A DNA stretch of 52,740 nt, from IMG/VR virus record IMGVR_UViG_3300050015_001011, positions 1-52,740 of that record. One strand, written 5' to 3'. The translations under genes and the position numbers were made by a program. Below, piece by piece: positions 2,290-46,483 of this stretch (position 1 is its first letter; every line of letters starts with the position of its first letter). The notes beneath the pieces are model-generated. The model was not told the DNA's origin. It made no database searches and saw only the letters and a program-made list of their open reading frames with translations. This DNA comes from a virus.

Positions 2290-3135
2290 TTATTTCTTTT
2301 CCCAATTAGGAATTAGATCTTCGTAAGTATCTTTCATTCTATTATATTCTTCTTTACCTATCACTATTAAAGTTTCTTCAGGATACTGTTCTTTGAAAAG
2401 CTGAATTTTTTCCTTTGATTTTTCATTCATATAACCTTTATCCTCATACCAAATATTAGTTCCTAAAATATGAAAATCAGGGCAATATGTTAATTTAGAG
2501 CCGTTTTTTCTATTAAGAATAAATCTTTTAGATTCATATTCAAATGGAATACCTTCATAATTAAATACTCTGGCATGATTAGCTTCCCATCTAGAACGAA
2601 AGTTTTGATTATCAAGATCTTTTCTTTTTCCTATTTTACCCCTTCCAGATTTTGGATGGGCACGTTTTCCGAACATATTACCTTTATCTCCTAATTGCGT
2701 TTTAGACATTAATTCTAAAGTTTCTGCGGAAGGATGCGTTCCAACTCTATTATGCCCTCTAATATATTTTTGCTTAGAATTTTTAAGACAGATAAATGGT
2801 TTTTCACAAGTACATTTGCAATATCTAGTTTCATATTCATGGCACTCTGGTTTATACGCAGGGGCTTTTTCTCCTATTCTGCCATACATAGGATTTCCTT
2901 TTCCAGTTACTGTTTTAGAGTGTTTTATTCGCGATTTTTTAGAACGAAATTTTCCTAACATAGGGGCATTTTTTCCTTTATTTTGATGTCCATTAATGAA
3001 TTTTTGTTTAGACCAAGTATAGCATATAAAAGTTATTTTGCATCCACAAACACAGCATCTAGTTTCTGTGATATGAAGCTCTGGTTTATAATTAGGGCCA
3101 TGTTTTTTCGTTCTTATGTATATACCTTTTGGCAT
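2290..3135 (-). CDS. modular homing endonuclease, PD-(D/E)XK type
   Basis: A free-standing selfish endonuclease of 281 residues. The N-terminus MPKGIYIRT is the leader shared by this window's family. It is followed by two Cys-rich finger-like modules (CVCGC..SKQKFINGH and CKCTC..SKQKYIRGH) and NUMOD3-like helical repeats (AETLELMSKTQLGDKG), which are DNA-binding modules. The C-terminal domain carries W-E, YCPDF and YEDKGYM, the spacing of a PD-(D/E)XK nuclease core (E, PD, ExK). It lies antisense between the exonuclease and the dpdA-like gene, eight bases past the former. Its own strong ribosome site AAAGGAGG shows it is translated. The nuclease fold is inferred from motifs. Confidence 0.85.
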   Translation of the reverse strand: MPKGIYIRTKKHGPNYKPELHITETRCCVCGCKITFICYTWSKQKFINGHQNKGKNAPMLGKFRSKKSRIKHSKTVTGKGNPMYGRIGEKAPAYKPECHEYETRYCKCTCEKPFICLKNSKQKYIRGHNRVGTHPSAETLELMSKTQLGDKGNMFGKRAHPKSGRGKIGKRKDLDNQNFRSRWEANHARVFNYEGIPFEYESKRFILNRKNGSKLTYCPDFHILGTNIWYEDKGYMNEKSKEKIQLFKEQYPEETLIVIGKEEYNRMKDTYEDLIPNWEKK

Positions 3136-3238: not shown

Positions 3239-4018
3239 ATGTTGATATCTCATACAGTACCTACCAAATATTTAAGAAAATTTGATGAATTTTCTTCAGT
3301 TTATCTAGTATTAGGACACCTAATTGGAAAAGACGAGGAATATACAAACTTTTTTACTCAATCTAAAAAATATAAATATATAGATAATTCGGCGTATGAA
3401 TTAGGAGAAGCGATAAAAAATCAGGAGCTGGTGGACAAAGCACATTTAATAAATGCTGATGCACTAGTACTTCCAGATGTTTTTATGGATGGATTAGAAA
3501 CGCTTAAAAGAACTTATGCATTCTTAGAAAAATTTAGAACAATTCACAAAGATTTTGATTTAGTAGCTGTGCCACAAGGAAAGACGCCAGAAGAATATTT
3601 AGATTGCGCAAGTGAATTATTAAAAATTAAAGAGATCAAAACTATTGCAGTATCATTTTTAGTTGTAGCAAGATGTTTTAGTATTATCACGCGAACAAAT
3701 GATCAGAATGTGTTAGCAAATAGACCTTTAGCAGTAGGTATGGTAAGGCAGTTAATGAGATTACAGGCAAATCAGCTTAATATACATCTTCTAGGTTTAG
3801 GTAATCCGATTGAATTATCTTGTTACAATAATAAAGGTTTTGTAGTTAGTTGTGATTCTTCTGTGGCATTTGCATTAGCTAATGTAGGATTGAAAGTAAA
3901 TAATTTAGGTTGTCCTAGAGATAAGTTTGATCACTTAAATTTTGATGAAACAGATACTTCTGCAGAAACATTGCTTTTAGCCGAACGAAATATCAGAAGA
4001 ATTAACAGCTTTATTTGA
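3239..4018 (+). CDS. dpdA: DpdA-like DNA 7-deazaguanine transglycosylase
   Basis: Likely exchanges guanine in DNA for a 7-deazaguanine base (such as preQ0), as phage DpdA proteins of the tRNA-guanine transglycosylase superfamily do. Features are a TIM-barrel-like pattern with YIDNSAYELG, ADALVLPDVFMDGLET, AVPQGKTPEEY, IHLLGLGNPIEL and a final VVSCDSSVAFALANVG strand that would carry an active-site aspartate. The start is the ATG after AAAGGAG, giving 259 residues, within the size range of phage DpdA. GTP cyclohydrolase (4719) and QueC (9044), both steps of preQ0 synthesis, lie nearby and support the call. Family assignment is by motif recall. The exact base made is unknown. Confidence 0.75.
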   Translation: MLISHTVPTKYLRKFDEFSSVYLVLGHLIGKDEEYTNFFTQSKKYKYIDNSAYELGEAIKNQELVDKAHLINADALVLPDVFMDGLETLKRTYAFLEKFRTIHKDFDLVAVPQGKTPEEYLDCASELLKIKEIKTIAVSFLVVARCFSIITRTNDQNVLANRPLAVGMVRQLMRLQANQLNIHLLGLGNPIELSCYNNKGFVVSCDSSVAFALANVGLKVNNLGCPRDKFDHLNFDETDTSAETLLLAERNIRRINSFI

Positions 4019-4144: not shown

Positions 4145-4717
4145 ATGAGAAAGGGTAAGATAAGTGAGTTCAGTCCGAAAATAGCTGGAAGCGACGCAAG
4201 TCATGCCGAATATTTGACAGAAGGAATTAAGAAGTCTCGTAAGATGGAAACGTTTGTAAAGATGTATGCTGAGAAGGACGTGAGAAAAATAAAGACGCTT
4301 CCAAGTATGAAAAAAAGAAAGGAGATTATGTTAGCAGCTTTAGATATGGCTAAGAAACCTGAGGAGAAGGTAAAGTATAATAAAGAGATTGCGAATAAGA
4401 TTGTATCACAAGTTTTAAAGAGATTGGAAGTAGGCTCACAGAAGTACGGCGCCGAGTATTTCCTTGCCGACTGTATTGGCGATGAACTTTATCAGGAGCT
4501 ACTTGACCAAGTAGGATGGGCACTTATTAACGCTGTGAGATGGGTAGAGGTATTTCAGAAAAGATTCTTACCGACGGACGCTATCTACTGGAAAAAGTTC
4601 ATGGCTAACCAGAAAATAGATTTTCTTTTAAAGCTGCAGGATGAAGTAAAAGAAGAACTCAGTAAGAGAAAAATTACTGCTAAAGTAGTTGGACTTAAAG
4701 AAAAAGGAGAAAAATAA
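4145..4717 (+). CDS. hypothetical protein
   Basis: A 190-residue basic N-terminal region plus a helical C-terminal half (VGSQKYGAEYFLADCIGDEL, then VGWALINAVRW). The second half vaguely recalls small phage proteins related to nucleotide pyrophosphohydrolases, but the key acidic motif is not clear. The start is taken at the ATG with GGAGG five bases upstream; an earlier in-frame ATG at 4124 lacks one. It overlaps no gene but almost touches folE. Confidence 0.7.
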   Translation: MRKGKISEFSPKIAGSDASHAEYLTEGIKKSRKMETFVKMYAEKDVRKIKTLPSMKKRKEIMLAALDMAKKPEEKVKYNKEIANKIVSQVLKRLEVGSQKYGAEYFLADCIGDELYQELLDQVGWALINAVRWVEVFQKRFLPTDAIYWKKFMANQKIDFLLKLQDEVKEELSKRKITAKVVGLKEKGEK

Positions 4718-4718
4718 T

Positions 4719-5309
4719 ATGCCTAGTATTGCTGAATCATTTGTAGAAATCTTGAGAAGTTTAAACATTGATCTTGCAGATGCTAATTTTACTGATACAC
4801 CAAATAGGGTCCAGAGAGTGTATGAGCATCTTTGTTTGCGCTGCGTAGTAGGACCAGAGAAGGATTTAGAGAGTATTAAAAAACTTACTGTTACGTTCCC
4901 AAGTACAGCAAAGAATTTGGTAGTTGTTAAAAATATAAAGGCATATAGTGTATGTCCGCATCACTTCTTGCCTGTGGAGTATAGAGTGGACTTTGGCTAC
5001 ATACCTGATGCGTCAGTTGTAGGGTTATCAAAGATCCCAAGACTTATAAAGTACTTGGCTAAGAAACCGGCTTTGCAAGAAGATTTTGTGGAAGAGATTG
5101 TAGATGTATTTGAGCAGATGTTAAAACCTCTTGGTTGTATGTCCATAGTCAGAGGTTTTCACGGGTGTATGAAGTTTCGTGGGATTGAGGAGCCTAACTC
5201 GCCGGTCATCACTTCTGCTATTAAGGGAGTGTTTAAAAATCCACCCGAAGGTAAGAATCCAAGACAAGAAATGTTGGATTTATTAAATGTAGAAGAAAAT
5301 TCAGGTTAA
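4719..5309 (+). CDS. folE: GTP cyclohydrolase I
   Basis: Converts GTP to 7,8-dihydroneopterin triphosphate, the first step of both folate and 7-deazaguanine (preQ0) synthesis. The signature is intact: SVCPHHFLPVEYRVDFGYIP with zinc ligands C79 and the adjacent histidines, GLSKIPR, and HGCMKFRG with C150. It has 196 residues, slightly shorter than bacterial FolE because the N-terminal helix is reduced. The start is the ATG after AAAGGAG. With QueC and the DpdA-like protein nearby, its likely job here is feeding 7-deazaguanine DNA modification rather than folate. Confidence 0.93.
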   Translation: MPSIAESFVEILRSLNIDLADANFTDTPNRVQRVYEHLCLRCVVGPEKDLESIKKLTVTFPSTAKNLVVVKNIKAYSVCPHHFLPVEYRVDFGYIPDASVVGLSKIPRLIKYLAKKPALQEDFVEEIVDVFEQMLKPLGCMSIVRGFHGCMKFRGIEEPNSPVITSAIKGVFKNPPEGKNPRQEMLDLLNVEENSG

Positions 5310-5316
5310 TTACTGT

Positions 5317-5976
5317 ATGAAGAATACATATAATTTTTGTGCTTGTGGCTGTAAACAAAGAGTTACTAAATTTAAGAATAAATATATTAATGGGCACAAC
5401 CAAAGAGGAAAATATCTTTCTTTGAATACTAGAAGCAAAATGAAACGAGCTCAGGCAGATCGAATTCTTCCAGCTGAAACAATAAAGAAATTTTCTACTG
5501 ATAAATTAGGTAAAAATAATCCTAATTGGAAAAAACATCCTTCTGAAGAAACCTTAAAATTAATGTCAGAGGCGCAGAAAGGTGAAAAAAATCACAATTT
5601 TGGAAAACCTGGTCCAGCAAAGGGAGGCAGAGGAAAGGGCGGCAAAAGAGAAGATTTAGGTAATCAATATTTTAGATCTAGTTGGGAACCTAATATTGCG
5701 CGGGTTTTTAATTGGGAAGGAATTCCCTTTGAATATGAACATAAGAGATTTATTTTAGTCAGGTCTGATAAATTAAAGGCGACATATTGCCTTGATTTTC
5801 ATATTACAGGAACTAATATCTGGTATGAAGTAAAAGGTTATATGGATAAATTATCGGCCGAAAAAATTCAACTTTTTAAAGAACAGTATCCCGATGAAAT
5901 TTTAATTGTGATTGGTTTAGAGAAATATAGAGCCTTAAAAGAAACTTATAAATATTTAATTTCTAATTGGGAATAA
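5317..5976 (+). CDS. modular homing endonuclease, PD-(D/E)XK type
   Basis: A 219-residue member of the window's selfish endonuclease family. It lacks the usual MPSGIYVRT leader and starts directly in a Cys finger (CACGCKQ..NKYINGH). NUMOD3-like repeats follow (SEETLKLMSEAQKGEKN), then the nuclease domain with the invariant W-E (SSWEPNIARVF), YCLDFH and WYEVKGYM. In the first acidic motif PD is replaced by LD, a possible sign of decay or tolerance. It sits eight bases after folE with only a weak ribosome site, so it may depend on read-through translation. Confidence 0.85.
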   Translation: MKNTYNFCACGCKQRVTKFKNKYINGHNQRGKYLSLNTRSKMKRAQADRILPAETIKKFSTDKLGKNNPNWKKHPSEETLKLMSEAQKGEKNHNFGKPGPAKGGRGKGGKREDLGNQYFRSSWEPNIARVFNWEGIPFEYEHKRFILVRSDKLKATYCLDFHITGTNIWYEVKGYMDKLSAEKIQLFKEQYPDEILIVIGLEKYRALKETYKYLISNWE

Positions 5977-12010: not shown

Positions 12011-12850
12011 ATGAATTTGGAATTAGAAAAGAGGGTATTAGAAGTCAAGAAAATTATAGGTGACGCTAAACATGCAGATGAGATTTCTGTGGAAGCAGCT
12101 GTACAAGCAGAGCCCAGTTTCGCAGCTCTTTTAAAAGAAATAGAAGGTTTAATTTATAAGTATGTTCATAAGTTTCCATCATTGAAGCAGAGGTATGGTG
12201 TAACAGATTTGTTTTGGAGAGGTGCCGCAAAGGCGTGGTATTCATTGCCTCTTTATGATCCTACCAAGGGAGTTCGCTTTATTACATATTTTACAACAGC
12301 ACTTAATAGTGAATTTGTATCTCTTTTAGAACATGATAATAGAGTGCCTGGTGGAAAAAAGAAAAGCGCTAATCTTAAAGAATTTGTGCGCAGATCTTTA
12401 GATAATGGAAAAAGTGAACTTCAGATTATGCGTGATTGCGCTCGATTTTTTCCTGAGCACTTAGTTGCTGACGGAAAGACTCTTTTGTTTGATGTCGCAG
12501 AATATATCAGACAGTTAGCAGAAGCATATGATTGGAAAGAAAGAGAACAATTTGATGCCTCTAAATTCGAGTTTCCTTGTATCGGAAATATTTTTTGGGA
12601 TAGAGCCGTAAAAGAACAAGGATTTTCTAATGAGGAAGAAAATCGAATTATCGTACGAAGACTACTTAAGGAAGTTACTAATCCCGCAGATAAAAGGATA
12701 CTTCATATTTATCTTGATTTATGCCGACTCAATGGAGAAGCTAGGTTTATTGATATAGCGAATAATCTATCATTGAATGTAAGTGAGGTTTACAAGGCGT
12801 TTTCTAATGTACGAAGGCTTGTATTAAAAGAGAATGTTTTCGCGGTATAA
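12011..12850 (+). CDS. sigma-70-like transcription factor
   Basis: Likely redirects host RNA polymerase to phage promoters. Residues about 65-115 resemble sigma region 2: VTDLFWRGAAKAWYSLPLYDPTKGVRFITYFTTAL, cited here as VTDLFWRG, then YDPTKGVRFITYF. The C-terminus (IDIANNLSLNVSEVYKAFSN) looks like the region 4 helix-turn-helix. It has 279 residues, and AAAGGAGG precedes the ATG. A divergent phage sigma would fit the -35-less TGTATAATAA motifs found around the window. Similarity is weak and this is a motif-level call. Confidence 0.62.
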   Translation: MNLELEKRVLEVKKIIGDAKHADEISVEAAVQAEPSFAALLKEIEGLIYKYVHKFPSLKQRYGVTDLFWRGAAKAWYSLPLYDPTKGVRFITYFTTALNSEFVSLLEHDNRVPGGKKKSANLKEFVRRSLDNGKSELQIMRDCARFFPEHLVADGKTLLFDVAEYIRQLAEAYDWKEREQFDASKFEFPCIGNIFWDRAVKEQGFSNEEENRIIVRRLLKEVTNPADKRILHIYLDLCRLNGEARFIDIANNLSLNVSEVYKAFSNVRRLVLKENVFAV

Positions 12851-13889: not shown

Positions 13890-15275
13890 ATGGCGAAGAC
13901 AAATAAGAAAGTGAAAGAGGAAAAGATTTATACACATGAAGGGTCTCCTGCTACCCGCACAACTGCTGAAAATCAATTGAGGCGTTCTTTGATGTCCTGT
14001 ATGTTGTGGGAAAATGAATTCTACGAAGATGGCCAAAAAATTTCTGAACGTATCGCTGATCTTGTTGGAAAGGTAGACAGAAATAAGGTTGCTTTAATGG
14101 CGATCGAAGCGCGGGAGAAGATGCATTTACGTCATGCTCCTTTGTGGGTTGTAAGGGCGCTTGCTAAAGTTTCTGATGGTACTTCTCTTGTATCTGATAC
14201 TCTTGCAACGGTTATACAGAGGCCAGACGAGTTAACAGAGTTTCTGGCTTTGTATTGGAAAGACGGTAAAGCACCTCTTTCTGCGCAAGTGAAGAAAGGA
14301 TTGGCAAAAGCATTTACTAAGTTCTCTGAGTATTCTTTGGCTAAGTACAATCGAGCTGAGGCCATTAAACTGAGAGACGTTTTATTTCTTTGCCACGCGA
14401 AACCAAAGGATCGGGATCAAGCTGATTTGTGGAAGAGATTGGTTGACGGAACAATGACAACTCCTGATACCTGGGAAGTGGAACTTTCTGCTGGCAAGAG
14501 CAAGAAAGATGTGTTTGAAAGACTGTTGAAGGAGAAGAAACTTGGTGGTCTTGCTTTCTTACGGAACTTGAGAAATATGGAAGAAGCTGGTGTAGACAAG
14601 AAGTTAGTAAACGCTTCAATAGAAACGGTTGATTTCTCAAGAGTATTACCTTTTAGATTTATTGCTGCTTCCATGGCTGCTCCTAAGTTTGAGGGAGTAA
14701 CAGAGAAGGCTATGTTAGCTTCTATGGAAGGTAAAGATAAGATGAAAGGCAAAACAGTTTTGATTGTAGATGTGTCTGGAAGTATGTATGGTTCTAGTAT
14801 ATCAGGCAGATCTATAATGAATAGAGCTCAGGTAGCAAGTGCCTTAGGAATATTAGTAAGGGAGTTGTCTGAGGATTCATCAATTTATGCTACTGCCGGA
14901 AATGATAGTTCGTGCGTTCATCAGACGGCTGTTGTACCCGCACGAAGAGGATTTGCTCTGTCGGATTATATTTACAGTCAGTGTAATCCTTTAGGTGGTG
15001 GAGGTATCTTTCTTAAACAAGTAATGGACTATGTTTTAAAGTATGAGAAAGAAGCTGACCGAGTTATTGTGATAACGGATGAGCAGGACTGTGGTGGAGG
15101 CGGAGAAGATGCTCCCGCAAAAGCAAATACCTTTGGAAAAGAAAATTATTTGATTAACGTAGCCTCTAATAAGAATGGAATTAGTTATACAGGAAAGTGG
15201 ACACGTGTTGATGGTTGGTCAGATGCGGTAGTAGATTTTATTTTGAAAAACGAGTCCCAAGTTCGTGAGCAGTAA
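13890..15275 (+). CDS. rsr: Ro60/Rsr ortholog (TROVE and vWA domains)
   Basis: The phage version of the Ro autoantigen. It forms a ring that binds Y RNAs and the ends of misfolded or structured RNAs. Bacterial Rsr works with 3'-5' exonucleases such as PNPase in RNA decay. Residues about 20-275 follow the TROVE HEAT-repeat pattern (LRHAPLWVVRALAKV, ELTEFLALYW, LAKYNRAEAIKLRDVLFLCH). A von Willebrand A domain follows with a complete MIDAS: DVSGS at 294-298 and ITDEQD near 397. At 461 residues it is shorter than the Deinococcus protein. AAGGAGG precedes the ATG. Y-RNA-like genes start nine bases after its stop, which strongly supports the assignment. Ro homologues are known in a few phages such as mycobacteriophage Bxz1. 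Confidence 0.92.
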   Translation: MAKTNKKVKEEKIYTHEGSPATRTTAENQLRRSLMSCMLWENEFYEDGQKISERIADLVGKVDRNKVALMAIEAREKMHLRHAPLWVVRALAKVSDGTSLVSDTLATVIQRPDELTEFLALYWKDGKAPLSAQVKKGLAKAFTKFSEYSLAKYNRAEAIKLRDVLFLCHAKPKDRDQADLWKRLVDGTMTTPDTWEVELSAGKSKKDVFERLLKEKKLGGLAFLRNLRNMEEAGVDKKLVNASIETVDFSRVLPFRFIAASMAAPKFEGVTEKAMLASMEGKDKMKGKTVLIVDVSGSMYGSSISGRSIMNRAQVASALGILVRELSEDSSIYATAGNDSSCVHQTAVVPARRGFALSDYIYSQCNPLGGGGIFLKQVMDYVLKYEKEADRVIVITDEQDCGGGGEDAPAKANTFGKENYLINVASNKNGISYTGKWTRVDGWSDAVVDFILKNESQVREQ

Positions 15276-15283
15276 AGAATATT

Positions 15284-15353
15284 ACAAGGTATGGTGAAGA
15301 TAAGGGTTACTTCATGAAAAGAAAACAACCCTAATCGCTTGTTCCTACCTTGT
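15284..15353 (+). ncRNA. Y-RNA-like RNA 1
   Basis: The ends pair perfectly over 8 bases (ACAAGGTA with TACCTTGT). Inside are TGGTGAAGATAA on the 5' side and TCGCTTGTTCC on the 3' side, then a second helix (AGGGTT 15303-15308 with AACCCT 15327-15332) and a loop starting ACTTC. The same plan recurs at 15366 and 15560 with different paired bases, which is compensatory evidence for the fold. The GG-YGAAG / CTTG layout resembles the Ro-binding stem of Y RNAs. It starts nine bases after rsr and is probably cut from that transcript. Confidence 0.75.
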
Positions 15354-15360
15354 ATAATAA
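15351..15360 (+). promoter_or_regulatory. TGTATAATAA motif before Y-like RNA 2
   Basis: TATAAT at 15353-15358 would start RNA at about 15365, exactly at the 5' stem of the second Y-like RNA. This is the best positional evidence in the window that TGTATAATAA is a real -10 element. It overlaps the 3' arm of RNA 1. Confidence 0.55.
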
Positions 15361-15365
15361 GTTGT

Positions 15366-15451
15366 CTGGTGTGGCGATAGAGAACGGTTACTTCTAATTG
15401 AAAATAGAATGCCCTTTAGTGGGCATAACCGTTTTCGTTTGTTCCCACCAG
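15366..15451 (+). ncRNA. Y-RNA-like RNA 2
   Basis: Terminal stem CTGGTG with CACCAG; conserved TGGCGATAGAGAA and TCGTTTGTTCC as in RNAs 1 and 3. The second helix is AACGGTT (15383-15389) with AACCGTT (15427-15433), again followed by ACTTCTAA. It has an extra apical hairpin, ATGCCC with GGGCAT (15409-15426). Between the copies the paired bases change but pairing is kept. Confidence 0.75.
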
Positions 15452-15459
15452 CAAATGTA

Positions 15460-15544
15460 GCGAGAGGAGCTGGTTTGATTCCAGGCTAAGTTAGGGTTAA
15501 CGTTAACTTAAATCCTAATCAATAGTGTACGAAGGCACGCTCGC
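15460..15544 (+). ncRNA. second, degenerate permuted tRNA-like element
   Basis: The order of parts matches the tRNA-like domain of RNA 3. GCGAG (15460-15464) pairs with CTCGC (15540-15544) as an anticodon-type stem. A T-arm-like CTGG-TTTGATT-CCAG follows at 15470-15484, then a capped 7-base acceptor-type stem, TAAGTTA (15487-15493) with TAACTTA (15504-15510). The T-loop has T where canonical C56 should be, and no convincing D-arm is visible. It has no Y-type stem of its own; it may be the 3' part of RNA 2 or a decayed copy. Confidence 0.5.
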
Positions 15545-15559
15545 AAAATGTAATCGCTT

Positions 15560-15700
15560 TTCAGTATGGCGTAGATAATGGGTACTTCTAAAAGGAACTG
15601 GCCGTCGTTGGTTCAATTCCAACTTCAAACCTTCGGGTTTGGATAGCTCAGTTGGCAGAGCACCAGTAAAAAAAGTCCTTTATCGCCTGTTCCTACTGAA
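15560..15700 (+). ncRNA. yrlA-like: YrlA-like Y RNA with a permuted tRNA domain
   Basis: Terminal stem TTCAGTA with TACTGAA. The 5' side has TGGCGTAGATAAT and GGGTACTTCTAA, the 3' side TTTATCGCCTGTTCC, the signature shared with RNAs 1 and 2. The distal end is a full tRNA-shaped domain (15597-15667) in permuted order, joined to the Y body through its anticodon-type stem and so lacking an anticodon. Bacterial YrlA RNAs have this two-part architecture: a Rsr-binding stem plus a tRNA mimic. It is followed by the AAAGGAGG of the next gene. Confidence 0.85.
15597..15667 (+). other. circularly permuted tRNA-like domain within Y-like RNA 3
   Basis: In DNA order: anticodon-stem 3' strand ACTGG, five-base variable region, T-stem GTTGG, T-loop TTCAATT, CCAAC, acceptor 3' strand TTCAAAC, a C(UUCG)G tetraloop, acceptor 5' strand GTTTGGA, T8-A9, D-stem GCTC, D-loop AGTTGGCA with G18-G19, GAGC, A26, and CCAGT closing the anticodon stem. 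Every stem has the normal tRNA length (7, 4, 5, 5), with one G-U pair in the acceptor. There is no CCA end or anticodon, so it cannot be charged or decode. Confidence 0.85.
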
Positions 15701-15718
15701 GATTTTAAAAGGAGGCAA

Positions 15719-16145: not shown

Positions 16146-17090
16146 ATGGCAAAGGAAAAGGAAGAGATGGAAGAGATGGACGAGTTTGATGCAGAAGTAT
16201 CTCGGCTGAAGAAACGTCAGGGAGGTCTTTGGGTTAAGGTTGAGCGGGACGATAATATCTTTCGGATTTTAGGGCCGATGGGTAAAACCGCCGTTCACTT
16301 TATTTCTAATCTTAAGATTATTCCGGAAGGTTCTCCAGTATCGGGTGTTGTTACTTGCGCGCAAACAAAAGATAAGAGATGTGTTGTTTGCGAGGTTGTA
16401 AAGAATCTTCTTAGTTCTTCAAGAGAAGAGGATCAGCAATTAGCCGGAAAGATTAGTGCTGTTCCGCGGTATATGTGGAACGTGCTAGTAAGAGAGGGCG
16501 GATCATCTTCGTATAAGATTCTTGAAATTGGTCCTCAGGCTCTTGAGGCACTAAGTGGTGTTAAGAAGGAGTGGGGTGATTTTCGCGATCCAGATGATGG
16601 ATATGATGTAGTTATTAATCTGGGAGACAAAGCAGGAAGAAATCACTACACAGCAAAAGCACGTGTTGAGAAAAAAGTTGTTGGAGGAAAGCCAACACAA
16701 GAACTTTGTGTTAGTCCTTTAACTGAAGATGAGAAGGCGTTGCCACTTATTGATTTAGTAGACATGAAGACGTTGACTCCGGAAGCAGATCTTATTGCTG
16801 TTTTCGAGAACGCAGGTTATGAGTTAAGTGGAAAAGCATCTGCGCCAAAAAGAACAGGTAAAGCAGAAGATAATTTTGATGAACCTGTTGTTAGTAAGAA
16901 GCCGAAGGCGGAAGAAAAGAAAGAAGAAGCTCCTACACCTAAGTTTGTAAAGAAGGGTGCAGCTCCTGTCGCTGGCGAAGAAAAGAAACCTAAGTGCTGG
17001 GGAACTTTTGAAGATGTGGATGAGTTATGTGGTAAGTGTTCACATTTGAATGCTTGCGCAAAGGCAGCTGGATTCGAATTGGTTCAGTAA
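16146..17090 (+). CDS. gp32-like single-stranded DNA-binding protein
   Basis: Coats ssDNA during replication and recombination. A Lys/Glu-rich N-terminus precedes a core with CAQTKDKRCVVCEVV (a zinc-knuckle-like segment as in gp32-type SSBs) and beta-rich stretches (WVKVERDDNIFRIL, YKILEIGPQALEAL). An acidic/Lys/Pro-rich linker (residues about 230-285) follows, then an unusual second Cys cluster, CWGTF..LCGKCSHLNACAKA, at the very end instead of a plain acidic tail. It has 314 residues. Its place just before recA, sbcD and sbcC fits. The assignment rests on layout and context. Confidence 0.78.
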   Translation: MAKEKEEMEEMDEFDAEVSRLKKRQGGLWVKVERDDNIFRILGPMGKTAVHFISNLKIIPEGSPVSGVVTCAQTKDKRCVVCEVVKNLLSSSREEDQQLAGKISAVPRYMWNVLVREGGSSSYKILEIGPQALEALSGVKKEWGDFRDPDDGYDVVINLGDKAGRNHYTAKARVEKKVVGGKPTQELCVSPLTEDEKALPLIDLVDMKTLTPEADLIAVFENAGYELSGKASAPKRTGKAEDNFDEPVVSKKPKAEEKKEEAPTPKFVKKGAAPVAGEEKKPKCWGTFEDVDELCGKCSHLNACAKAAGFELVQ

Positions 17091-25292: not shown

Positions 25293-25305
25293 TTAAAGGA
25301 GGAAA

Positions 25306-26031
25306 GTGAACGTTTTAATCTTGAACGGCGGCAGAAATCTTAGAATGGATGGTAGTCCTAAATGTTTGACCTTTATAAAAGGAAGAACTATTTTTGAGTG
25401 GCAGTATAGATGGTTAAACAGCAGAAAGAAATTTTTGGATGATCCTCTTAATATTTGCGTTGCTATCGGCGGAAATAAAGTGTTGGAGGATTATTTTAAG
25501 AATAGTTTTAGAGAGTCTCTTTTTTCTGGCTCTTCTTTTTCTTCTATTAAAACTTTTGGAGAAGTTGAACCTCTTGGGGATGCAGGAGCTATTAGATATT
25601 ATTTAGAAAATTATGTTGTTGAAGGAAATTTTTTAGTGCTGAATGGTGATACTCTTTCTTTTTATAATTTAGAAGATTTTGTTTCTTTTTCTGATAGTAA
25701 TTATTTTGAATACGGAACTATTGTTATTAAACCGTTTGTAGTGCATTTAGGTTTATTACAGACTGAGGTTGGTAAAATAAAAAGTTTTAGAGAAAAACCT
25801 TTGTTGGAAGAGTATAGTATAAGTTGTGGAACTTATATGCTACATAGTAGAATATTGGATGCACTTCCTAAAAAGGGTGATCTTGCTAAAGATGTTATTG
25901 CTGAGAATATCGATAAGTTTTTTACGTATAGTATTAAATCCGATGAATGGTGCGCAGTGGAATCAAAGAAGGATACTGATTTTGCAGAGAATTTAATTTA
26001 TAGACATTTATTTAAAACTTTTAAGGATTAG
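25306..26031 (+). CDS. sugar-phosphate nucleotidyltransferase
   Basis: Activates a sugar-1-phosphate with NTP to supply the neighbouring glycosyltransferases. LNGGRNLRMDGSPKCL matches the NTP-binding GGxxxR..PK motif. FLVLNGDTL is the metal-binding strand and KIKSFREKP the sugar-side motif. It has 241 residues, typical of the catalytic domain alone. The start is a GTG after AAAGGAGG. The sugar cannot be inferred. Confidence 0.87.
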   Translation: MNVLILNGGRNLRMDGSPKCLTFIKGRTIFEWQYRWLNSRKKFLDDPLNICVAIGGNKVLEDYFKNSFRESLFSGSSFSSIKTFGEVEPLGDAGAIRYYLENYVVEGNFLVLNGDTLSFYNLEDFVSFSDSNYFEYGTIVIKPFVVHLGLLQTEVGKIKSFREKPLLEEYSISCGTYMLHSRILDALPKKGDLAKDVIAENIDKFFTYSIKSDEWCAVESKKDTDFAENLIYRHLFKTFKD

Positions 26032-29095: not shown

Positions 29096-32000
29096 ATGAC
29101 TAAAGAGTTGAAAGTAGTAAAGGAAAGCAGTAAAAGTGCTGGTTCTACAGAGATAGATCTTTTAGTTGAAAGTTTATCGGCCGAGGAAGTTGGACCTTGG
29201 AGTAAAGATAGAGTTGCTGAATCTTTAATGTTAGAAGCAGGTTTAGAAAAAGAGAAGGCAGATGATATAGCGACTGTTGTAGAAGACAGAATATCGCAGT
29301 TGAAGATATCGAGAATTTCTACTTCTTTAGTAAGGGAGCTAGTAAACAATGAACTTTTGGAAAGAGGTGAAAATAAGCGTCTTAAACGATATCAGTGTCT
29401 TGAGATACCTATTTCGGATATTGAATCATTTACCTTTGCTAAGAGTAATGCTAATTCTAATATTAATAACAACAATCCAGAGTCAGTAGCTTTTTTTATG
29501 AGTGAGAATATCACCAAGAAGTATGCTTTACGTAGAGTATTTTCTCAAGATGTTACTCAGGCTCATTTAGATGGCAGGATTTATATACACGATCTTGGAA
29601 TGGTAGAAAGGCTTTATTGCTTTGGTGGAAATATTCCTGAGTATTTAAAGAAGTATGGTTTGCAGGATCTTGATAGTTTGAGCACTAAATCCTTTCCTGC
29701 CAGCACTGCTAATACGCTAGTAGGACATATTAATACATTTCTTTCCATCATACAGGCTTATTTTGCGGGCGCTTTAGGTTTAGGATTTTTAAATATATTT
29801 TTTGCTCCGTATTTAATGAATATGAGTCGCGAACAAGTTTATAATTTAGCGCAGCATTTTGTATTCAGTCTCTCACAGAATTGTTTTAGTAGAGGAGCAC
29901 AGGTTTTATTTATTGATTTAAATTTGCATTTTGGTATTCCGAAGGTGTTAAAAGATGTTCCGGCTATTGGCCCAAAAGGTAAATACATGATAAAGATGCA
30001 TATCAAAGATACTTGTAATAATTCTTGGATCTTTTATAATGATAAACCCGAAATTGATTTAGAGAAAATAGATATCGAGATAAAGAGATTGAATGAGGAG
30101 GCTGAAAGTACTGTGATGGGAGATGTTTGTTACGGTTTTCCTGAATCGGTTAAGGATGATAATATAGAATTTAGGGTTATGACTTATGGTGATTTCGAAC
30201 AGGAAGCTCAAATGTTTCTTGATGTTATTTTGCAGCTGTATAAAGAAGGAGACAAGCAAGGTAATTTCTTTTACTTTCCAAAGATAGATTTGCATATCAC
30301 TAAAGAATGTTTTGAAGATGAGACACAGAAGGCTCTTTTGATGAAGGCCTGTGAAACTGCTTCTGTTAATGGAACTCCTTATTTTATATATGATAGAGAT
30401 TCAACGGTGCTCAGCCAATGCTGTTTAGAGGCTAAGGAGCCTTTACTTCTTAGAAAGGAAGGCAAAGTATTTTTAGGCAAGGCTGAAGATATGTCGACAC
30501 AATCGGAGATAATTGCTGTTGATCCCGTTTCTCATAAATCTGAGTGGGTATTTCCTAAACACGTTATAACGAGAGAAGAGAGTGCTATAGTTGAGATTAC
30601 TGCTCGAGATGGTAAACAAATGCGTGTTACTAAAGACCATCCAATATTAATATTAGAAGATGGAGAAGTAAAGGAGCGGAAGGCCGAGGCATTAAAAGAA
30701 GGTGATTTTGTTTTGCGCAAAGTTAAATGGGAAGATTCTCTCTTTTCTATTAATTATAAAGAACATAAAGGCGTTCTTATAGATGAGGAATATGCTTTTA
30801 TGCTTGGGTTGTTTCAAGCAGAGGGATGTAAATCTAAAGCAGGTGAACTGTGTTTTGCTCTTCATAAAGATGAACTCGATTTAGTGAATAGGGTGTGTGA
30901 CTTTTTTGGCTTGAGTTTTATTCGAAAACAATATGTTGATAAATATCATATTTGGGATATTCGCGTTCGGAGTATTTGTTCGCGGATTCAATTTAAAGAA
31001 ATTTGTGAGAAATATGAAAAGATTCCTCAAGTTATTTGGAATTCTCCGCTTTCAGTTATGAAGGCATACATAGAGGGATTTTATGCTGGTGATGGGTGGA
31101 AATACTCTAATTATACTTTGAAAAAAGGAAAAGGAATAGGTATTAATGATGCTAATCTTAGCGTAGAACTTTCTATTTTGCACGATATGATAGGTATTCC
31201 TACTACGTATAGAGAGCATAGTTACACAAGTAAAAAAGGTAAGCATGTTGGAAGGGAATTTTTTCACCAAGTAATTTTGTATCAAACTTCAGTGTCTAAG
31301 CATTCTATTTTGTATGATAGAATACCTCATCAGCTTATAAAGTTTAAGCGTGGTGCATCTCACTTACTTCGTATTGATAAAAAAGAAAAATTAATTGGTA
31401 TTGATAAATTAAATTCTCTTTGCGACCAAGGGTATGTAGAACGCGCTCAAGTAGATCGATGTATGAATGATCCTATTCGATATATTCCTATTGAAAAAGT
31501 AGAAGTTTTAAGCGGTGAGTTTAAGGTTTATGATATAGAACTTCCTAAGTTTAATTGGTTTGTGCACTCTCAAAGTTTTATTAGTCACAATTGCCGCCTG
31601 AAGGTAGAAATAAATGATGAGGAGCTGATTAAGCATCCAGAGTCAATTAGATTTTGTGCTTTGCAGAACGTAACCATAAATCTTCCTCAAGCAGCTTACC
31701 GTGCAGGCAAAGGTAATTTTACTGATTTTATTGATGAGGTTTATAAGTCAATGGATTTTGCTATGAAGGCGCACGAACAAAAGGCGCGGCTAATGAAGAA
31801 GTGTATGAAACCAGGTGCTCCTTTATATACGGTTGGAAAGGCTTGGTCGGACAAACTTCCTTGGGTTGATTTAGATAAGAGTACGCGGATTATTGGTATT
31901 CTTGGTTTGAATGAGGCAATGCAGTTTCTTTTTGATAAGGGATTGGATGATGAGAAGTCTTACAAGAAGGGTTTAGAAACAATAGTAAGAATGTATCATA

Positions 32001-32638
32001 AATGTGAAAAGTATGAAAAAGAGTTTGAATGCCCTGTTCGACTTGAGGAGACTCCAGCTGAATCGCTCGCATATAGAGCCGCTAAGGTAGATTTACAGCG
32101 ATTTCCCGAGCAGGCTAAGTCCGTTGTAAGGGGTTCAGTAGAAGGCGGAGGCGTTTACTATTCGAATTCGGTGCATTTACCTGTTGATTCACCTGTTGGC
32201 ATAGTAGAGAGAGTTAAGAAGCAAAGTGCCTTTCATCCTTTAGTAAGAAGTGGGAGTATGGTACATGCTTGGGTTAATGATTCTCTACCAGAGCCAGGAA
32301 GTCTATTTAGTTTTCTTCAGAAAGTGTATAATAATACGGCATGTGATCAAATTTGTGTTTCTCCAAATTTTACTTTTTGTAAAGATTGCGATCAGAGATC
32401 TGTAGGATTACTTGATGAGTGCCCGTATTGTAAGAGTAAAAACTTAGAACATGTTTCTCGAGTTACAGGATATTTTTCGAAGGTAGAGAATTATAACGCG
32501 GGAAAGAAGCAGGAAGTAAAAGATAGACTTAAAGGAGATTGTAAAGTAGAAGAAAAACAGTTTTATGAAGTAATTAGAGAAATAGATGAGGTATTAAAAT
32601 CTGATACTGTGTGCAAATTAAAAGTAGAGGAGAAATAG
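29096..32638 (+). CDS. nrdD: class III (anaerobic) ribonucleotide reductase with intein
   Basis: Reduces NTPs to dNTPs using a glycyl radical, so it works only without oxygen. Residues about 1-95 look like an ATP-cone. The catalytic part has YIHDLG, SVNGTPYFIYDRDS and SQC-CRLK. Near the C-terminus are a four-cysteine zinc site (CKDC, CPYC) and RVTGYF, the glycyl-radical loop. An intein of 390 residues interrupts SQC|CRLK; without it the enzyme is about 790 residues. The activase NrdG is not in this window. A GGAG stands before the ATG. Confidence 0.94.
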   Translation: MTKELKVVKESSKSAGSTEIDLLVESLSAEEVGPWSKDRVAESLMLEAGLEKEKADDIATVVEDRISQLKISRISTSLVRELVNNELLERGENKRLKRYQCLEIPISDIESFTFAKSNANSNINNNNPESVAFFMSENITKKYALRRVFSQDVTQAHLDGRIYIHDLGMVERLYCFGGNIPEYLKKYGLQDLDSLSTKSFPASTANTLVGHINTFLSIIQAYFAGALGLGFLNIFFAPYLMNMSREQVYNLAQHFVFSLSQNCFSRGAQVLFIDLNLHFGIPKVLKDVPAIGPKGKYMIKMHIKDTCNNSWIFYNDKPEIDLEKIDIEIKRLNEEAESTVMGDVCYGFPESVKDDNIEFRVMTYGDFEQEAQMFLDVILQLYKEGDKQGNFFYFPKIDLHITKECFEDETQKALLMKACETASVNGTPYFIYDRDSTVLSQCCLEAKEPLLLRKEGKVFLGKAEDMSTQSEIIAVDPVSHKSEWVFPKHVITREESAIVEITARDGKQMRVTKDHPILILEDGEVKERKAEALKEGDFVLRKVKWEDSLFSINYKEHKGVLIDEEYAFMLGLFQAEGCKSKAGELCFALHKDELDLVNRVCDFFGLSFIRKQYVDKYHIWDIRVRSICSRIQFKEICEKYEKIPQVIWNSPLSVMKAYIEGFYAGDGWKYSNYTLKKGKGIGINDANLSVELSILHDMIGIPTTYREHSYTSKKGKHVGREFFHQVILYQTSVSKHSILYDRIPHQLIKFKRGASHLLRIDKKEKLIGIDKLNSLCDQGYVERAQVDRCMNDPIRYIPIEKVEVLSGEFKVYDIELPKFNWFVHSQSFISHNCRLKVEINDEELIKHPESIRFCALQNVTINLPQAAYRAGKGNFTDFIDEVYKSMDFAMKAHEQKARLMKKCMKPGAPLYTVGKAWSDKLPWVDLDKSTRIIGILGLNEAMQFLFDKGLDDEKSYKKGLETIVRMYHKCEKYEKEFECPVRLEETPAESLAYRAAKVDLQRFPEQAKSVVRGSVEGGGVYYSNSVHLPVDSPVGIVERVKKQSAFHPLVRSGSMVHAWVNDSLPEPGSLFSFLQKVYNNTACDQICVSPNFTFCKDCDQRSVGLLDECPYCKSKNLEHVSRVTGYFSKVENYNAGKKQEVKDRLKGDCKVEEKQFYEVIREIDEVLKSDTVCKLKVEEK
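30422..31591 (+). mobile_element. LAGLIDADG intein in nrdD
   Basis: Residues 443-832 of the precursor. It begins with Cys1 (CLEAKEPLLL), has block B with TKDHP, and ends with SFISHN before the +1 Cys of the C-extein, so all splicing residues are present. The two LAGLIDADG helices are FMLGLFQAEG and AYIEGFYAGDG with acidic active-site residues, so the endonuclease is probably active. The insertion point is a conserved catalytic-site sequence of NrdD, as is usual for inteins. Confidence 0.93.
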
Positions 32639-33044: not shown

Positions 33045-33571
33045 AATTAGGTGGTGGTAGGGCTAAAGGTTATGGATTTGAGAATCAGATAGCAAAGTTG
33101 TTTTCGACTTGGTGGGGCATAGAAAAATCCTTCGTCCGTTCTCCAGGCAGTGGAGCATGGGGTAAGCTTTCTAAGTTCGTCGGTAACTGCCCAGCAGGAG
33201 ATTTAGTTACTCCTGATGAGTTTCCCTTCACTATAGAGTGTAAAAAATGCGAGGATATTCAGCTGCATCATATATTAATTAATTCTGAAGGATGTTCTAT
33301 TGCCTGTTGGCTAAAAAAACTTGAAGAAGAAGACTGTAAGATTTCTGGAAAGAGACCAATGTTGATTTTTTCTAAGAATAATTGGAAGGCTTATGTGGTT
33401 GTAAGATGTAATGCTTTTGATAAGCTTGCAAATCTATTTCCTAAGAAAGGTGATCCTATTCATTTTATCTGGAAAGGGTATGCAGTATTTTTATTAGATG
33501 ATCTTTTAAAAGGTGTTACTAAGGATAGGTTACTTGTGGAATTTCCGGAGTTCGTGAAAAATGGCCAATAA
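33041..33571 (+). CDS. PD-(D/E)XK nuclease, Holliday-junction-resolvase-like
   Basis: 176 residues. KGYGFENQIAKLF, RSPGSGAWGK, AGDLV and FTIECKKCE give the E, GD and ExK order of archaeal-type Hjc resolvases. Such an enzyme would resolve branched DNA before packaging. It overlaps the phosphoesterase gene by 11 bases. Other PD-(D/E)XK roles are possible. Confidence 0.78.
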   Translation: MKLGGGRAKGYGFENQIAKLFSTWWGIEKSFVRSPGSGAWGKLSKFVGNCPAGDLVTPDEFPFTIECKKCEDIQLHHILINSEGCSIACWLKKLEEEDCKISGKRPMLIFSKNNWKAYVVVRCNAFDKLANLFPKKGDPIHFIWKGYAVFLLDDLLKGVTKDRLLVEFPEFVKNGQ

Positions 33572-42564: not shown

Positions 42565-43284
42565 ATGTCGTATATAAGAACACCGGAAATTTTAGAAAAA
42601 CAATCTAAAGCACTGATGGGGCATCTTGTCAGTAGAGAAGTACGTGATAAGATAGCAAAAGCTTTAATTGGAACAACCCGTACTGAAGAATCTAAATTAA
42701 AACAATCCAAGACAATGTCTGGCGAGAATCATCCTAATTATAATCCTAAAAATTATATTATGGAGACTAGGTATTGTGCTTGTGGCTGTTTAGCGCCTTT
42801 TGAGTGTTCTATAACTTCTGAAAAAAGTTGTCTCACAGGGCATAGTAGGCTTACTAAAGAGAAGCATGAAAATATGTCTAGAGCTACTTCCGGTAAAAAT
42901 AACGGTCATTATGGGAAGCCAGCTGCAAAAGAAGCAGGTCGCGGAAAAGTAGGAACGCGCTTAGATCTTAATCAGTTCTTTCGTTCTACTTGGGAAGCAA
43001 ATCAAGCTAGAGTTTTTAATTGGGAAGGTATTCCTTGGAAGTTTGAATCTAAAAGATTTTATTTTACTGGCGACAACGTTAAAAGTTCGTATTGTCCGGA
43101 CTTTCATATCCCAGGAACTAATATTTGGTATGAAGTAAAAGGTTATATGGATGATGTTGCGAAGAAAACCATTAAAATATTTCGTAAGCAGTATCCTAAT
43201 GAGATTTTGATAGTAATAGGTAAAGAAGAATACGGTAGAATGAGAGACACATATAAAGACTTGATTCCTAATTGGGAATCTTAA
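42565..43284 (+). CDS. modular homing endonuclease, PD-(D/E)XK type
   Basis: 239 residues: two NUMOD3-like repeats, one Cys finger (CACGCLAPF..LTGH with the usual Lys replaced), another NUMOD3-like repeat, then STWEANQARVFNWEGIPW, YCPDFHIPGTN and WYEVKGYM of the nuclease core. All catalytic positions are intact. It is inserted between the spoVG-like gene and a small gene and is preceded by a regulatory pseudoknot. Confidence 0.87.
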   Translation: MSYIRTPEILEKQSKALMGHLVSREVRDKIAKALIGTTRTEESKLKQSKTMSGENHPNYNPKNYIMETRYCACGCLAPFECSITSEKSCLTGHSRLTKEKHENMSRATSGKNNGHYGKPAAKEAGRGKVGTRLDLNQFFRSTWEANQARVFNWEGIPWKFESKRFYFTGDNVKSSYCPDFHIPGTNIWYEVKGYMDDVAKKTIKIFRKQYPNEILIVIGKEEYGRMRDTYKDLIPNWES

Positions 43285-43983: not shown

Positions 43984-45348
43984 ATGATTAAGTTATCAAC
44001 ACAACCTAAATACAAGATAGGAGACCTCATCACTTTAAAACAAGGTGCTGAGGTAATTATTTCTGGTACGCAGGACGAGGTTCCGAGAAAGTGGGTAGAT
44101 GATGGTAAGCTTTGGGGTGTAGATCATTATGAGGAAGAATCAGGAAGGCTTAATATCAATCGCGTACTTACTCCTTATCCTGGTGCTTTTTGTTCTTGGG
44201 TATCCGAAGATGAAGTACTAGGAATAAGTTTAAGTAGACAAGCTCAAGATGATGAAGATGAGTTTGATGTAGTAGCACGCAAGTTTCTAAAGTGGACAAA
44301 GAGTTTAAATCTTTCAACTCCGAGCGCATTTATTTCTAAGAATAAATTAGAAAGATTATTTAAAGGGCTTGCTAAAACAGGGTTTATAGATAGACCGTTA
44401 CTTGAGGAACTTAGAATGGACGTAATTGTTAATTTAAAAAGTTTTGTAAGTAAAGTTAAAGAATTTTGGAAAAGATATAACGTAATGGATGAAGATGAGA
44501 AGGGGCATCTTTCTAGCATCTGGAGTGAAGGATCGTATGATAATGATGATATTGAGGCCGGAATGGACAACCTAGATGAGTTATTCTCTTTTGAAGATAG
44601 TGGCGGTGGCTTATCTTATTACGAAGCTCTATTGCAACCGGGACTTTCAGATGCAGATTTATTTCAAAGATTTAATACATTCATAAATTTTGCTCATCAG
44701 AGAATAGATTATGGCGCAGATTGGGTAGAAGGAGGTAGAGAAACTTTGGATGAATTAGCTGGCTATAAAAAAGTATTTAAAAAGAAAGCAGCAGACTTTA
44801 CTTGCATTATGCTAGAGATAGATAAGCAAGAAAGTATTTATGCTAAGATAAAGGCTATTGCAAAGAAGATAAAGAAGGAAGATCTGTCAGAAGATGGTAG
44901 AGAAGATGATTTACATGTTACGCTGAAGTATGGACTTGATACCGAAGATCCTGCCCTCATAAGGCCTTTACTTGATAGTGAAGGAAAAATTACTTTAGAA
45001 ATAAAGAAGCTCGATTATTTTGGGGCTAAGGAAACAAAGCAGGATTTTGATGTAGTTATTCTTAGAGTAGATTCTGATCAAATACAAGAACTTCATGAAA
45101 CTATAACTGATACCTTTAAGGATTCGGGCGAAACTCATCCTAAGTACTTGCCCCATATTACTCTTGCTTATGTAAAAAGGGGTTTGGGAAAAGATATCGT
45201 AATAGAATTAAGAAAGGATGCTGAAGATTTAATAGGTAAAAAAATTGTATTTAAAGAAGCTTTATTCAGTACACCAGAAGAAAAAAAGACTGTGATAAAA
45301 TTAAGTAGGCAGATAGTAAAACAAGTTAGATTAAGCAGACAAGGATAA
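43984..45348 (+). CDS. multidomain protein with C-terminal 2H phosphoesterase
   Basis: 454 residues. Residues 1-80 start MIKLSTQPKYKIGD and form a small beta domain. After GISLSRQAQ (81-88) comes a helical domain. From about 278 there is a 2H phosphoesterase with both HxT motifs, HVTL (311-314) and HITL (391-394). The end is KLSRQIVKQVRLSRQG. 2H enzymes act on 2',3'- or 2',5'-phosphoesters; phage members include RNA-repair enzymes and the anti-CBASS protein Acb1. Repeated LSRQ at domain borders suggests cleavage or linker sites. Confidence 0.75.
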   Translation: MIKLSTQPKYKIGDLITLKQGAEVIISGTQDEVPRKWVDDGKLWGVDHYEEESGRLNINRVLTPYPGAFCSWVSEDEVLGISLSRQAQDDEDEFDVVARKFLKWTKSLNLSTPSAFISKNKLERLFKGLAKTGFIDRPLLEELRMDVIVNLKSFVSKVKEFWKRYNVMDEDEKGHLSSIWSEGSYDNDDIEAGMDNLDELFSFEDSGGGLSYYEALLQPGLSDADLFQRFNTFINFAHQRIDYGADWVEGGRETLDELAGYKKVFKKKAADFTCIMLEIDKQESIYAKIKAIAKKIKKEDLSEDGREDDLHVTLKYGLDTEDPALIRPLLDSEGKITLEIKKLDYFGAKETKQDFDVVILRVDSDQIQELHETITDTFKDSGETHPKYLPHITLAYVKRGLGKDIVIELRKDAEDLIGKKIVFKEALFSTPEEKKTVIKLSRQIVKQVRLSRQG

Positions 45349-45350
45349 AT

Positions 45351-46058
45351 ATGCCAAGTGGAATATATGTAAGAACAATAGAGATGAATGAAAGGCAGTC
45401 TAAAATAATGACAGGAAAACTTACTGGTGATCCTCGATTAAGTAGAAAAGGTAAGCTAAATTCTCAGTATGGTAAAACCGGAGAAAATGCTCCTAATTAT
45501 AATCCGAAGAACTATATTTTAGAAACTAGAATATGTGTATGCGGCTGTAGTTTACCTTTTGAATGTTCTTTGTCTTCTAAAAAGAGATTTATTAAAGGCC
45601 ATGGTCGCATAGGTAAGATTTTTTCTGAAGAGGCTTTAAAGCTAATGTCTGAAGCAAGGAAAGGTGAAAAGCATCCTAATTTTGGAAAATCCGCTTATCC
45701 CGGCTCTGGTTATGGTAAATCTGGTAAAAGAAAAGATCTCAATAATCAAAGCTTTAGATCTACCTGGGATGCTAATGTAACTCGCATCTTTAATTATGAG
45801 GGTATACCATCAGAATATGAATGTAAAAGATTTCCTCTTATTAGGGCAGATGGTTCAAAAACGTCATATCTTCCTGATCATCATATTGTAGGAACACATA
45901 TATGGTACGAGCAGAAAGGTTATATGAGATCCGGTTGCCTGGAAAAAATAACTTTGTTTAGAGAACAGTATCCAAATGAAATTTTAATTGTAATAGGTCC
46001 TGAAGAATATAAAAGATTTAAAGAGTCTTACAAAGATTTAATTCCTAACTGGGAGTAG
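45351..46058 (+). CDS. modular homing endonuclease, PD-(D/E)XK type
   Basis: 235 residues with the MPSGIYVRT leader, a Cys finger (CVCGCSLPF..KKRFIKGH), a NUMOD3-like repeat (EEALKLMSEARKGEKHPNFG) and the nuclease domain, where YLPDHHI and WYEQKGYM keep D, E and K. It lies three bases after the 2H protein and two before the DUF192 gene, both of which carry LSRQG at the junction. This suggests it split a once continuous frame or a duplicated segment. Confidence 0.87.
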   Translation: MPSGIYVRTIEMNERQSKIMTGKLTGDPRLSRKGKLNSQYGKTGENAPNYNPKNYILETRICVCGCSLPFECSLSSKKRFIKGHGRIGKIFSEEALKLMSEARKGEKHPNFGKSAYPGSGYGKSGKRKDLNNQSFRSTWDANVTRIFNYEGIPSEYECKRFPLIRADGSKTSYLPDHHIVGTHIWYEQKGYMRSGCLEKITLFREQYPNEILIVIGPEEYKRFKESYKDLIPNWE

Positions 46059-46440: not shown

Positions 46441-46483
46441 AAATGCAGGAAATTCTAATTATTTTATAGTAAAGGAGATTGTA

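What the first reader, a model, noticed from the sequence alone, without database searches (positions are those of the whole stretch)
13890..15700. Phage-encoded Ro60/Rsr with its own cluster of Y-like RNAs
Seen: a TROVE-vWA protein with an intact MIDAS, and nine bases after it three RNAs sharing the plan terminal stem, TGGYG(A/T)..GATAA, second helix, ACTTC loop, TCG..TGTTCC, terminal stem. The stems differ in sequence yet keep pairing, which is compensatory change. Known: Ro60/Rsr binds Y RNAs, bacterial Rsr-Y RNA complexes tether exonucleases, and a few phages carry Ro homologues. Inference: this is a complete phage RNP locus with at least three Y RNA species, more than is typical in bacteria. 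It could redirect host RNA decay, scavenge rRNA nucleotides, or guard phage RNAs.
Basis: partly seen in the sequence, partly recalled or inferred. Interest (0 to 1): 0.96.

Follow-up and report, generated by a model that had tools for sequence, protein, structure and literature searches.

The report
Phage Ro60 gene with Y RNAs
A virus of bacteria carries its own version of the human autoantigen Ro60 together with three matching small RNAs, a pairing known from bacteria and some phages; its relatives include an apparently undescribed form in which the Ro60-binding stem replaces the anticodon arm of a tRNA.

Summary
The window, a 52.7-kb phage fragment, encodes a Ro60/Rsr protein (13890-15275). 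Seven bases downstream lie exactly three RNAs of one structural family: RNA1 15283-15354, RNA2 15366-15451, RNA3 15558-15702. A covariance model from 41 short phage RNAs finds these three and nothing else significant in the window; RNA3 was held out of training. The model matches 52 of 56 further phage rsr loci and 75 of 80 bacterial rsr loci, always on the rsr strand. Pairs co-vary on both sides throughout.

So the set is two minimal Y RNAs plus one tRNA-mimicking YrlA-type RNA. Three RNAs is not more than bacteria have: loci there reach eight. The MIDAS is not fully intact, because its Thr is Ile.

Phage Rsr with Y RNAs was already known, so the window is a new member of a known kind. The most likely role is an Rsr-Y RNA particle that adapts a host tRNA-binding or RNA-processing enzyme such as PNPase. 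That step is inferred only.

More novel, in relatives including crAss001: tRNA bodies, some with encoded CCA, whose anticodon arm is a circularly permuted Ro-binding Y stem.

The parts
13890..15275 (+). rsr: Ro60/Rsr homologue, 461 aa, TROVE (HEAT-like ring) plus vWA domain; MIDAS residues D294, S296, S298, D397 present, Thr position is Ile373
15283..15354 (+). Y RNA 1, minimal type (72 nt): 9-bp P1, bulged T, GG:CC, P2 helix, TACTTC loop motif, TGTTCC
   Evidence: 73.8 bits, E 3e-19; a training sequence of the model
15366..15451 (+). Y RNA 2, minimal type (86 nt), same plan with an extra small hairpin in the loop
   Evidence: 56.4 bits, E 4e-14; a training sequence of the model
15558..15702 (+). 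Y RNA 3, YrlA type (145 nt): same Ro-binding stem plus tRNA-like effector module
   Evidence: 42.2 bits, E 6e-10, held out of training; RF02553 YrlA, 33.9 bits, below the gathering score of 69
15608..15622 (+). T-arm mimic TTGG-TTCAATT-CCAA in RNA3
15624..15643 (+). acceptor-stem mimic closed by a TTCG tetraloop in RNA3
15644..15661 (+). U8-A9 plus D-arm mimic TAGCTCAGTTGGCAGAGC in RNA3
15597..15667 (+). 5-bp stem ACTGG/CCAGT that closes the tRNA-like module, at the position of a tRNA anticodon stem

Best explanation
This is a phage Ro60-Y RNA ribonucleoprotein locus. Rsr forms a ring that binds the basal stem of each Y RNA (conserved bulge, RG:CY pair, TGTTCY). The two minimal Y RNAs (RNA1, RNA2) occupy and gate the ring. 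The long one (RNA3) presents a tRNA-like module that recruits a tRNA-binding or RNA-processing enzyme, most likely host PNPase as in the Deinococcus/Salmonella RYPER machine, so the phage can steer structured-RNA decay or quality control during infection. Shown: the protein fold, the RNA structures, their co-variation, their linkage to rsr, and the tRNA-like module. Inferred from homology: binding of these RNAs by this Rsr, gating, the enzyme partner, and the benefit to the phage.
For: Ro60 fold and TROVE domain. Three RNAs in the window, model-unique. Double-sided covariation. Tests that do not select for what they measure: 77 of 80 motif-plus-P1 candidates keep the R:Y pair as G-C (53) or A-T (24); P2 in 72/80 against 24/80 chimeras; P1 in 94/157 against 5/157 chimeras, with 82 different stem hexamers; bulge is T in 91/94. 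The model finds 129 matches in 52 of 56 phage rsr loci, none on the opposite strand, and 213 in 75 of 80 bacterial rsr loci. Reverse linkage: 42 of 48 stretches found by RNA pattern alone carry rsr within 661 bases. YrlA match in RNA3. The RYPER role of Rsr/YrlA/PNPase is summarised in PMC8394870. No PNPase-type domain in the phage record, so such a partner would have to come from the host or from missing phage sequence.
Against: No transcription or binding data exist for this phage. Its host is unknown, so the presence of PNPase in the host is assumed. The MIDAS Thr is replaced, and the vWA domain scores below Pfam's cut-off (21.1 against 27.7). The window is a fragment. RNA3 is below Rfam's gathering score for YrlA.
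Confidence: 0.65

Rival explanations
1. Guard or quality-control role without a nuclease: Rsr with Y RNAs acts as a chaperone or holding site for phage tRNAs, misfolded RNAs or damaged RNAs, and RNA3's tRNA mimic recruits tRNA modification or repair enzymes.
For: Some phage rsr loci sit in tRNA clusters, and Listeria phage A511 has RtcB and an RNA ligase near rsr. Jumbo-phage authors group TROVE with RNA repair (PMC7824862). YrlA is reported as a substrate of tRNA-modifying enzymes (PMC8394870).
Against: The window has no tRNA genes and no RtcB. Its one RNA-ligase-like protein has a 2H phosphoesterase/Acb1-like domain far from rsr.
Confidence: 0.2
2. The RNAs mainly control Rsr itself: stems just after the stop codon bind Rsr and set its free amount, as gate or feedback, with no effector enzyme.
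For: RNA1 starts 7 bases after the stop codon; two of three RNAs lack any effector module.
Against: In most relatives the RNAs lie upstream of rsr, and a tRNA-like module is kept in RNA3 and in many relatives.
Confidence: 0.1
3. The hairpins are unrelated 3'-UTR or terminator structures that resemble each other by chance.
For: They follow a gene closely.
Against: Model specificity, covariation and reverse linkage to rsr; no intrinsic terminator at the + strand RNAs.
Confidence: 0.01

Closest known systems
Bacterial Rsr/Ro60 with YrlA Y RNA (Salmonella, Deinococcus; RYPER with PNPase)
   Same: Ro60-fold protein; basal-stem Y RNAs encoded beside it; RNA3 has the YrlA arrangement T arm, closed acceptor-like stem, D arm.
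   Different: Phage-borne; two of the three RNAs are minimal, without a tRNA-like module; MIDAS Thr replaced; no PNPase or RtcB in the record.
Phage Y RNAs (Chen et al. 2014 RNA 20:1715, recalled; cited in PMC12282133 for bacteria and mycobacteriophages; Listeria phage CKA15 in PMC12282133)
   Same: Phage rsr with nearby small RNAs; several RNAs per locus.
   Different: CKA15's relative A511 has no significant match to the model R1, so its strongly transcribed RNAs are not shown to be of this structural type.
Ro60 of Thermus phage phiLo (PDB 9l5y)
   Same: Phage Ro60 fold, best solved relative by sequence and structure.
   Different: About 23-28% identity; only one weak R1 match beside its gene (L025, 25.1 bits).
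Bacteroides phage crAss001 rsr locus
   Same: Rsr 39% identical; two short Y RNAs directly after rsr, the same layout as RNA1 and RNA2.
   Different: Its tRNA-like partners are circularly permuted tRNA bodies instead of a YrlA-type RNA.

Membership tests
Ro60/Rsr | TROVE domain and Ro60 fold | tested here: met
Ro60/Rsr | vWA domain with complete MIDAS (DxSxS, T, D) | tested here: inconclusive
   DxSxS and D present, Thr is Ile373; vWA_Ro60 below Pfam cut-off. The GGGGIF form is the majority in this phage clade
Y RNA | Long basal stem pairing 5' and 3' ends, with conserved bulge and motifs that bind Ro | tested here: met
Y RNA | Encoded beside rsr | tested here: met
Y RNA | Physical binding to Rsr | not testable with these tools
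   needs an experiment
YrlA (RF02553), RNA3 only | tRNA-like module with T arm, acceptor-like stem and D arm | tested here: met
   Elements present in order
YrlA (RF02553), RNA3 only | Score at Rfam gathering threshold | tested here: not met
   33.9 bits against 69, E 1.4e-5 in 601 bases. No phage Y RNA in two searched sets reached 69 either; best 54.4. So RNA3 is called YrlA-type, not a certified member
RYPER (Rsr-Y RNA-PNPase machine) | PNPase tethered by the tRNA-like module | not testable with these tools
   No RNase_PH domain in the phage record; host unknown

The most novel reading that the evidence does not exclude
Phage rsr loci make Y RNAs in three architectures: minimal (RNA1, RNA2), YrlA type (RNA3), and, in relatives, a circularly permuted form in which an intact tRNA body (7-bp acceptor, D arm, T arm, in some cases encoded CCA) has its anticodon arm replaced by the Ro-binding Y stem closed by a short loop. 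Such RNAs could be matured by the tRNA pathway and place Ro60 on tRNA-handling enzymes. They occur in crAss001, cr106_1, cr112_1 and several unrelated IMG/VR phages; RNAalifold predicts the fold unprompted, with both-sided changes at all seven acceptor pairs. None was found in 80 bacterial rsr loci or in the window.
Probability: 0.7. Interest if true: 0.75.

Novelty: new member of a known kind. Interest (0 to 1): 0.55.

Why it matters
Why viruses carry the Ro60 autoantigen is open. The locus gives a compact, testable unit: one Ro60, two minimal Y RNAs and one tRNA-mimicking Y RNA. The survey shows that phage and bacterial rsr loci share one Y RNA family, supplies a covariance model that recovers it far better than Rfam's YrlA model does in phages, and points to cultured phages (crAss001, CcrColossus, Xanthomonas phage Olaya) in which function can be tested. 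The circularly permuted tRNA-Y chimeras, if confirmed, are a new RNA architecture and tie Ro60 directly to tRNA maturation.

Tried and rejected
1) A fourth, tRNA-like RNA between RNA2 and RNA3 (15452-15557) looked plausible by eye but is not found by model R1, Rfam at E<=10, or a tRNA-module descriptor; dropped. 2) Transfer of the strong expression reported for Listeria phage CKA15 to this family: relative A511 gives no significant R1 match; dropped. 3) Half of the IMG/VR hits to the permuted-RNA pattern are tandem ordinary Y RNAs (a D arm of one followed by the start of the next); only 7 of 14 have the closed short Y hairpin, a T arm and 6-7 Watson-Crick acceptor pairs. 4) Promoters and terminators: no better than shuffles. 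6) Chen et al. 2014 and the Sim/Wolin reviews are not in the library, so their exact phage list could not be read. 7) Weak R1 match at 3529-3556 (E 1.5) and descriptor match at 33144-33306: chance level.

Full report
What the window is. The window is a complete 52,740-base virus record (a fragment by IMG/VR class). Its genes are those of a tailed phage: exonuclease, dCTP deaminase, QueC, primase, UvsX-like recombinase, SSB, SbcCD, anaerobic ribonucleotide reductase with an intein, thymidylate synthase, terminase. rsr lies between a possible sigma-like protein (12011-12850) and the gp32-like SSB (16146-17090).

The protein. ORF 13890-15275 encodes 461 aa. Pfam TROVE matches at E 2.5e-17; the vWA_Ro60 model matches at 21.1 bits, below its 27.7 cut-off. 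The AlphaFold model (28 sequences, pLDDT 85.8) aligns over its whole length with Ro60/Rsr structures, among them Ro60 of Thermus phage phiLo and Xenopus Ro60 bound to RNA. MIDAS: D294, S296, S298 and D397 are conserved, but the Thr position reads Ile373 in a GGGGIF motif that is the majority form among these phage proteins. 'Intact MIDAS' is therefore too strong.

The RNAs. Seven bases after the stop codon begin three RNAs on the same strand: 15283-15354 (72 nt), 15366-15451 (86 nt), 15558-15702 (145 nt). All have a basal stem P1, one bulged T, GG opposite CC, an asymmetric loop, a second helix P2 and the motif TACTTC; the 3' strand reads TGTTCC. The descriptor occurs nowhere else in the window on either strand.

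Related loci. tblastn finds 89 GenBank phage records with a relative, and IMG/VR scans gave 13 and then 80 loci, with 538 relatives counted. A stricter descriptor with P2 gives 128 matches on the rsr strand, 2 on the other, 1 in a shuffled set. Sizes fall into short (61-100 nt) and long (101-180 nt), the long ones mostly with a T-loop motif; ACTTC is in 53/63 short and 43/50 long.

Is the structure real? Descriptor hits are selected for pairing, so each element was tested without selecting on it. Candidates chosen by motifs and P1 only, with any base allowed at the R and Y positions: 53 G-C and 24 A-T of 80, no G-T or A-C. P2 forms in 72/80 against 24/80 for chimeras of different RNAs. Candidates chosen by motifs and P2: P1 in 94/157 against 5/157, with 82 different hexamers among 94. 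On 41 short RNAs RNAalifold finds the same P1, RG:CY and P2 without being told, 17 of 18 pairs with both-sided change; named-structure counts give covariation 0.726 against 0.195 shuffled and at most 0.175 slid.

Is it linked to rsr? Model R1 was built from those 41 (RNA1 and RNA2 included, RNA3 not). In the window it returns the three RNAs at 73.8, 56.4 and 42.2 bits and then noise. In 56 other phage rsr loci, all but three (L010, L013, L022) not used in training, it returns 129 matches in 52 loci, all on the rsr strand; in whole records the matches cluster at rsr, with an occasional one elsewhere. Conversely, IMG/VR stretches found by an RNA pattern alone carry rsr within 661 bases in 42 of 48 cases, always on the same strand.

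RNA3 and the tRNA mimic. Rfam's YrlA model matches 15590-15685 at 33.9 bits, E 1.4e-5, below its gathering score of 69. The parts are a T arm (15608-15622), an acceptor-like stem closed by TTCG (15624-15643), U8-A9 and a D arm (15644-15661), and a closing stem at the anticodon-stem position (15597-15601/15663-15667). A descriptor for such modules gives this place alone in the window, score 22; 20 shuffled windows reached at most 20. RNA1 and RNA2 have no such module.

Number of RNAs. Three is not unusual. CcrColossus shows seven, an IMG/VR phage has six in tandem, and bacterial rsr loci (Acidobacteriota, Bradyrhizobium and others) give 213 matches in 75 of 80 loci, up to eight in one. By descriptor, short RNAs are commoner in phages (64 of 116) than in bacteria (18 of 86); the two samples are not phylogenetically balanced.

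Circularly permuted tRNA-Y RNAs in relatives. After rsr in crAss001 come two short Y RNAs and then, at L022 4175-4318 and about 4430-4570, tRNA bodies whose anticodon arm is replaced by TGTTCC, a short closed hairpin, a bulge and TGGTGTA...TTACTTC: the Y stem in circularly permuted order. The same occurs in cr106_1, cr112_1 and IMG/VR phages L028, L035, L042, L072, L087, L109, L160, L163 and L166; those in L028, L035, L042 and L166 have an encoded CCA. Acceptor pairing was required in one scan but not in the pattern scan, where all seven single-RNA cases had 6 or 7 Watson-Crick pairs. RNAalifold on 14 of them predicts acceptor, D arm, T arm and the closed Y hairpin, with both-sided changes at all seven acceptor pairs. 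ARAGORN reports none of the crAss cases as tRNA. No true case was seen in 80 bacterial loci (one match there was a tandem of ordinary RNAs). The literature available here does not mention it, but key papers could not be read.

Mechanism. In bacteria Rsr, YrlA and PNPase form an RNA degradation machine, with the basal stem on Rsr and the tRNA-like domain on PNPase (PMC8394870). The window has the first two parts. No RNase_PH or RtcB domain is in the record, so a host partner is the simplest reading. Which enzyme is bound and what the phage gains are inferences.

Known or new. From memory, Chen et al. 2014 reported Y RNAs near Ro60 in more than 250 bacterial and phage species, at least one per species with a tRNA-like domain; PMC12282133 cites that paper for bacteria and mycobacteriophages and suggests Y RNAs in Listeria phage CKA15. 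The window is a new member of a known kind. The permuted tRNA-Y form is the part that may be new.

Noticed in passing
L022 4175-4318 and about 4430-4570 (crAss001); L023 4083-4224; L021 about 4693-4837; L028 1520-1644; L035 2235-2359; L042 3953-4076, 4089-4214; L072 107-233; L087 2141-2268; L109 4556-4685, 4804-4928; L160, L163, L166: tRNA bodies beside phage rsr whose anticodon arm is a circularly permuted Ro-binding Y stem; some with encoded CCA.
   Followed up: partly
L015 1673-1740 (CcrColossus 'tRNA-Gln'); L017 2296-2370 (Gurke 'tRNA-Ser'); L019 2285-2355 (ARAGORN 'tRNA-Asn', Olaya): tRNA calls that overlap Y RNA or YrlA matches and are probably misannotated Y RNAs.
   Followed up: partly
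L172 about 25300-25620, minus strand (Listeria phage A511): Three stem-loops with a shared (T/C)A(A/C)ACAGCAA(T/A)TACTA-like motif directly upstream of the distant rsr; not matched by R1, possibly another Y RNA type.
   Followed up: no
window 29096-32638: Anaerobic ribonucleotide reductase (NrdD) interrupted by an intein with LAGLIDADG signature.
   Followed up: no
window 43984-45348: 454-aa protein with a C-terminal 2H phosphoesterase domain similar to anti-CBASS Acb1.
   Followed up: no
window 12011-12850: Weak sigma-70 region 2 match (22.1 bits, cut-off 24) in a protein a little upstream of rsr.
   Followed up: no
window 2290-3135 (-), 5317-5976, 42565-43284, 45351-46058, 46418-47314: Five paralogous endonucleases (phrog_9019); the one tested, 42565-43284, has a NUMOD3 motif, suggesting homing endonucleases.
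   Followed up: no
L036 2501-3916: rsr interrupted by one in-frame TAG; recoding, a sequencing error, or an insertion was not distinguished.
   Followed up: no
window 15452-15557: 106-base stretch between RNA2 and RNA3 with T-arm-like and D-arm-like letters, not matched by any model.
   Followed up: partly
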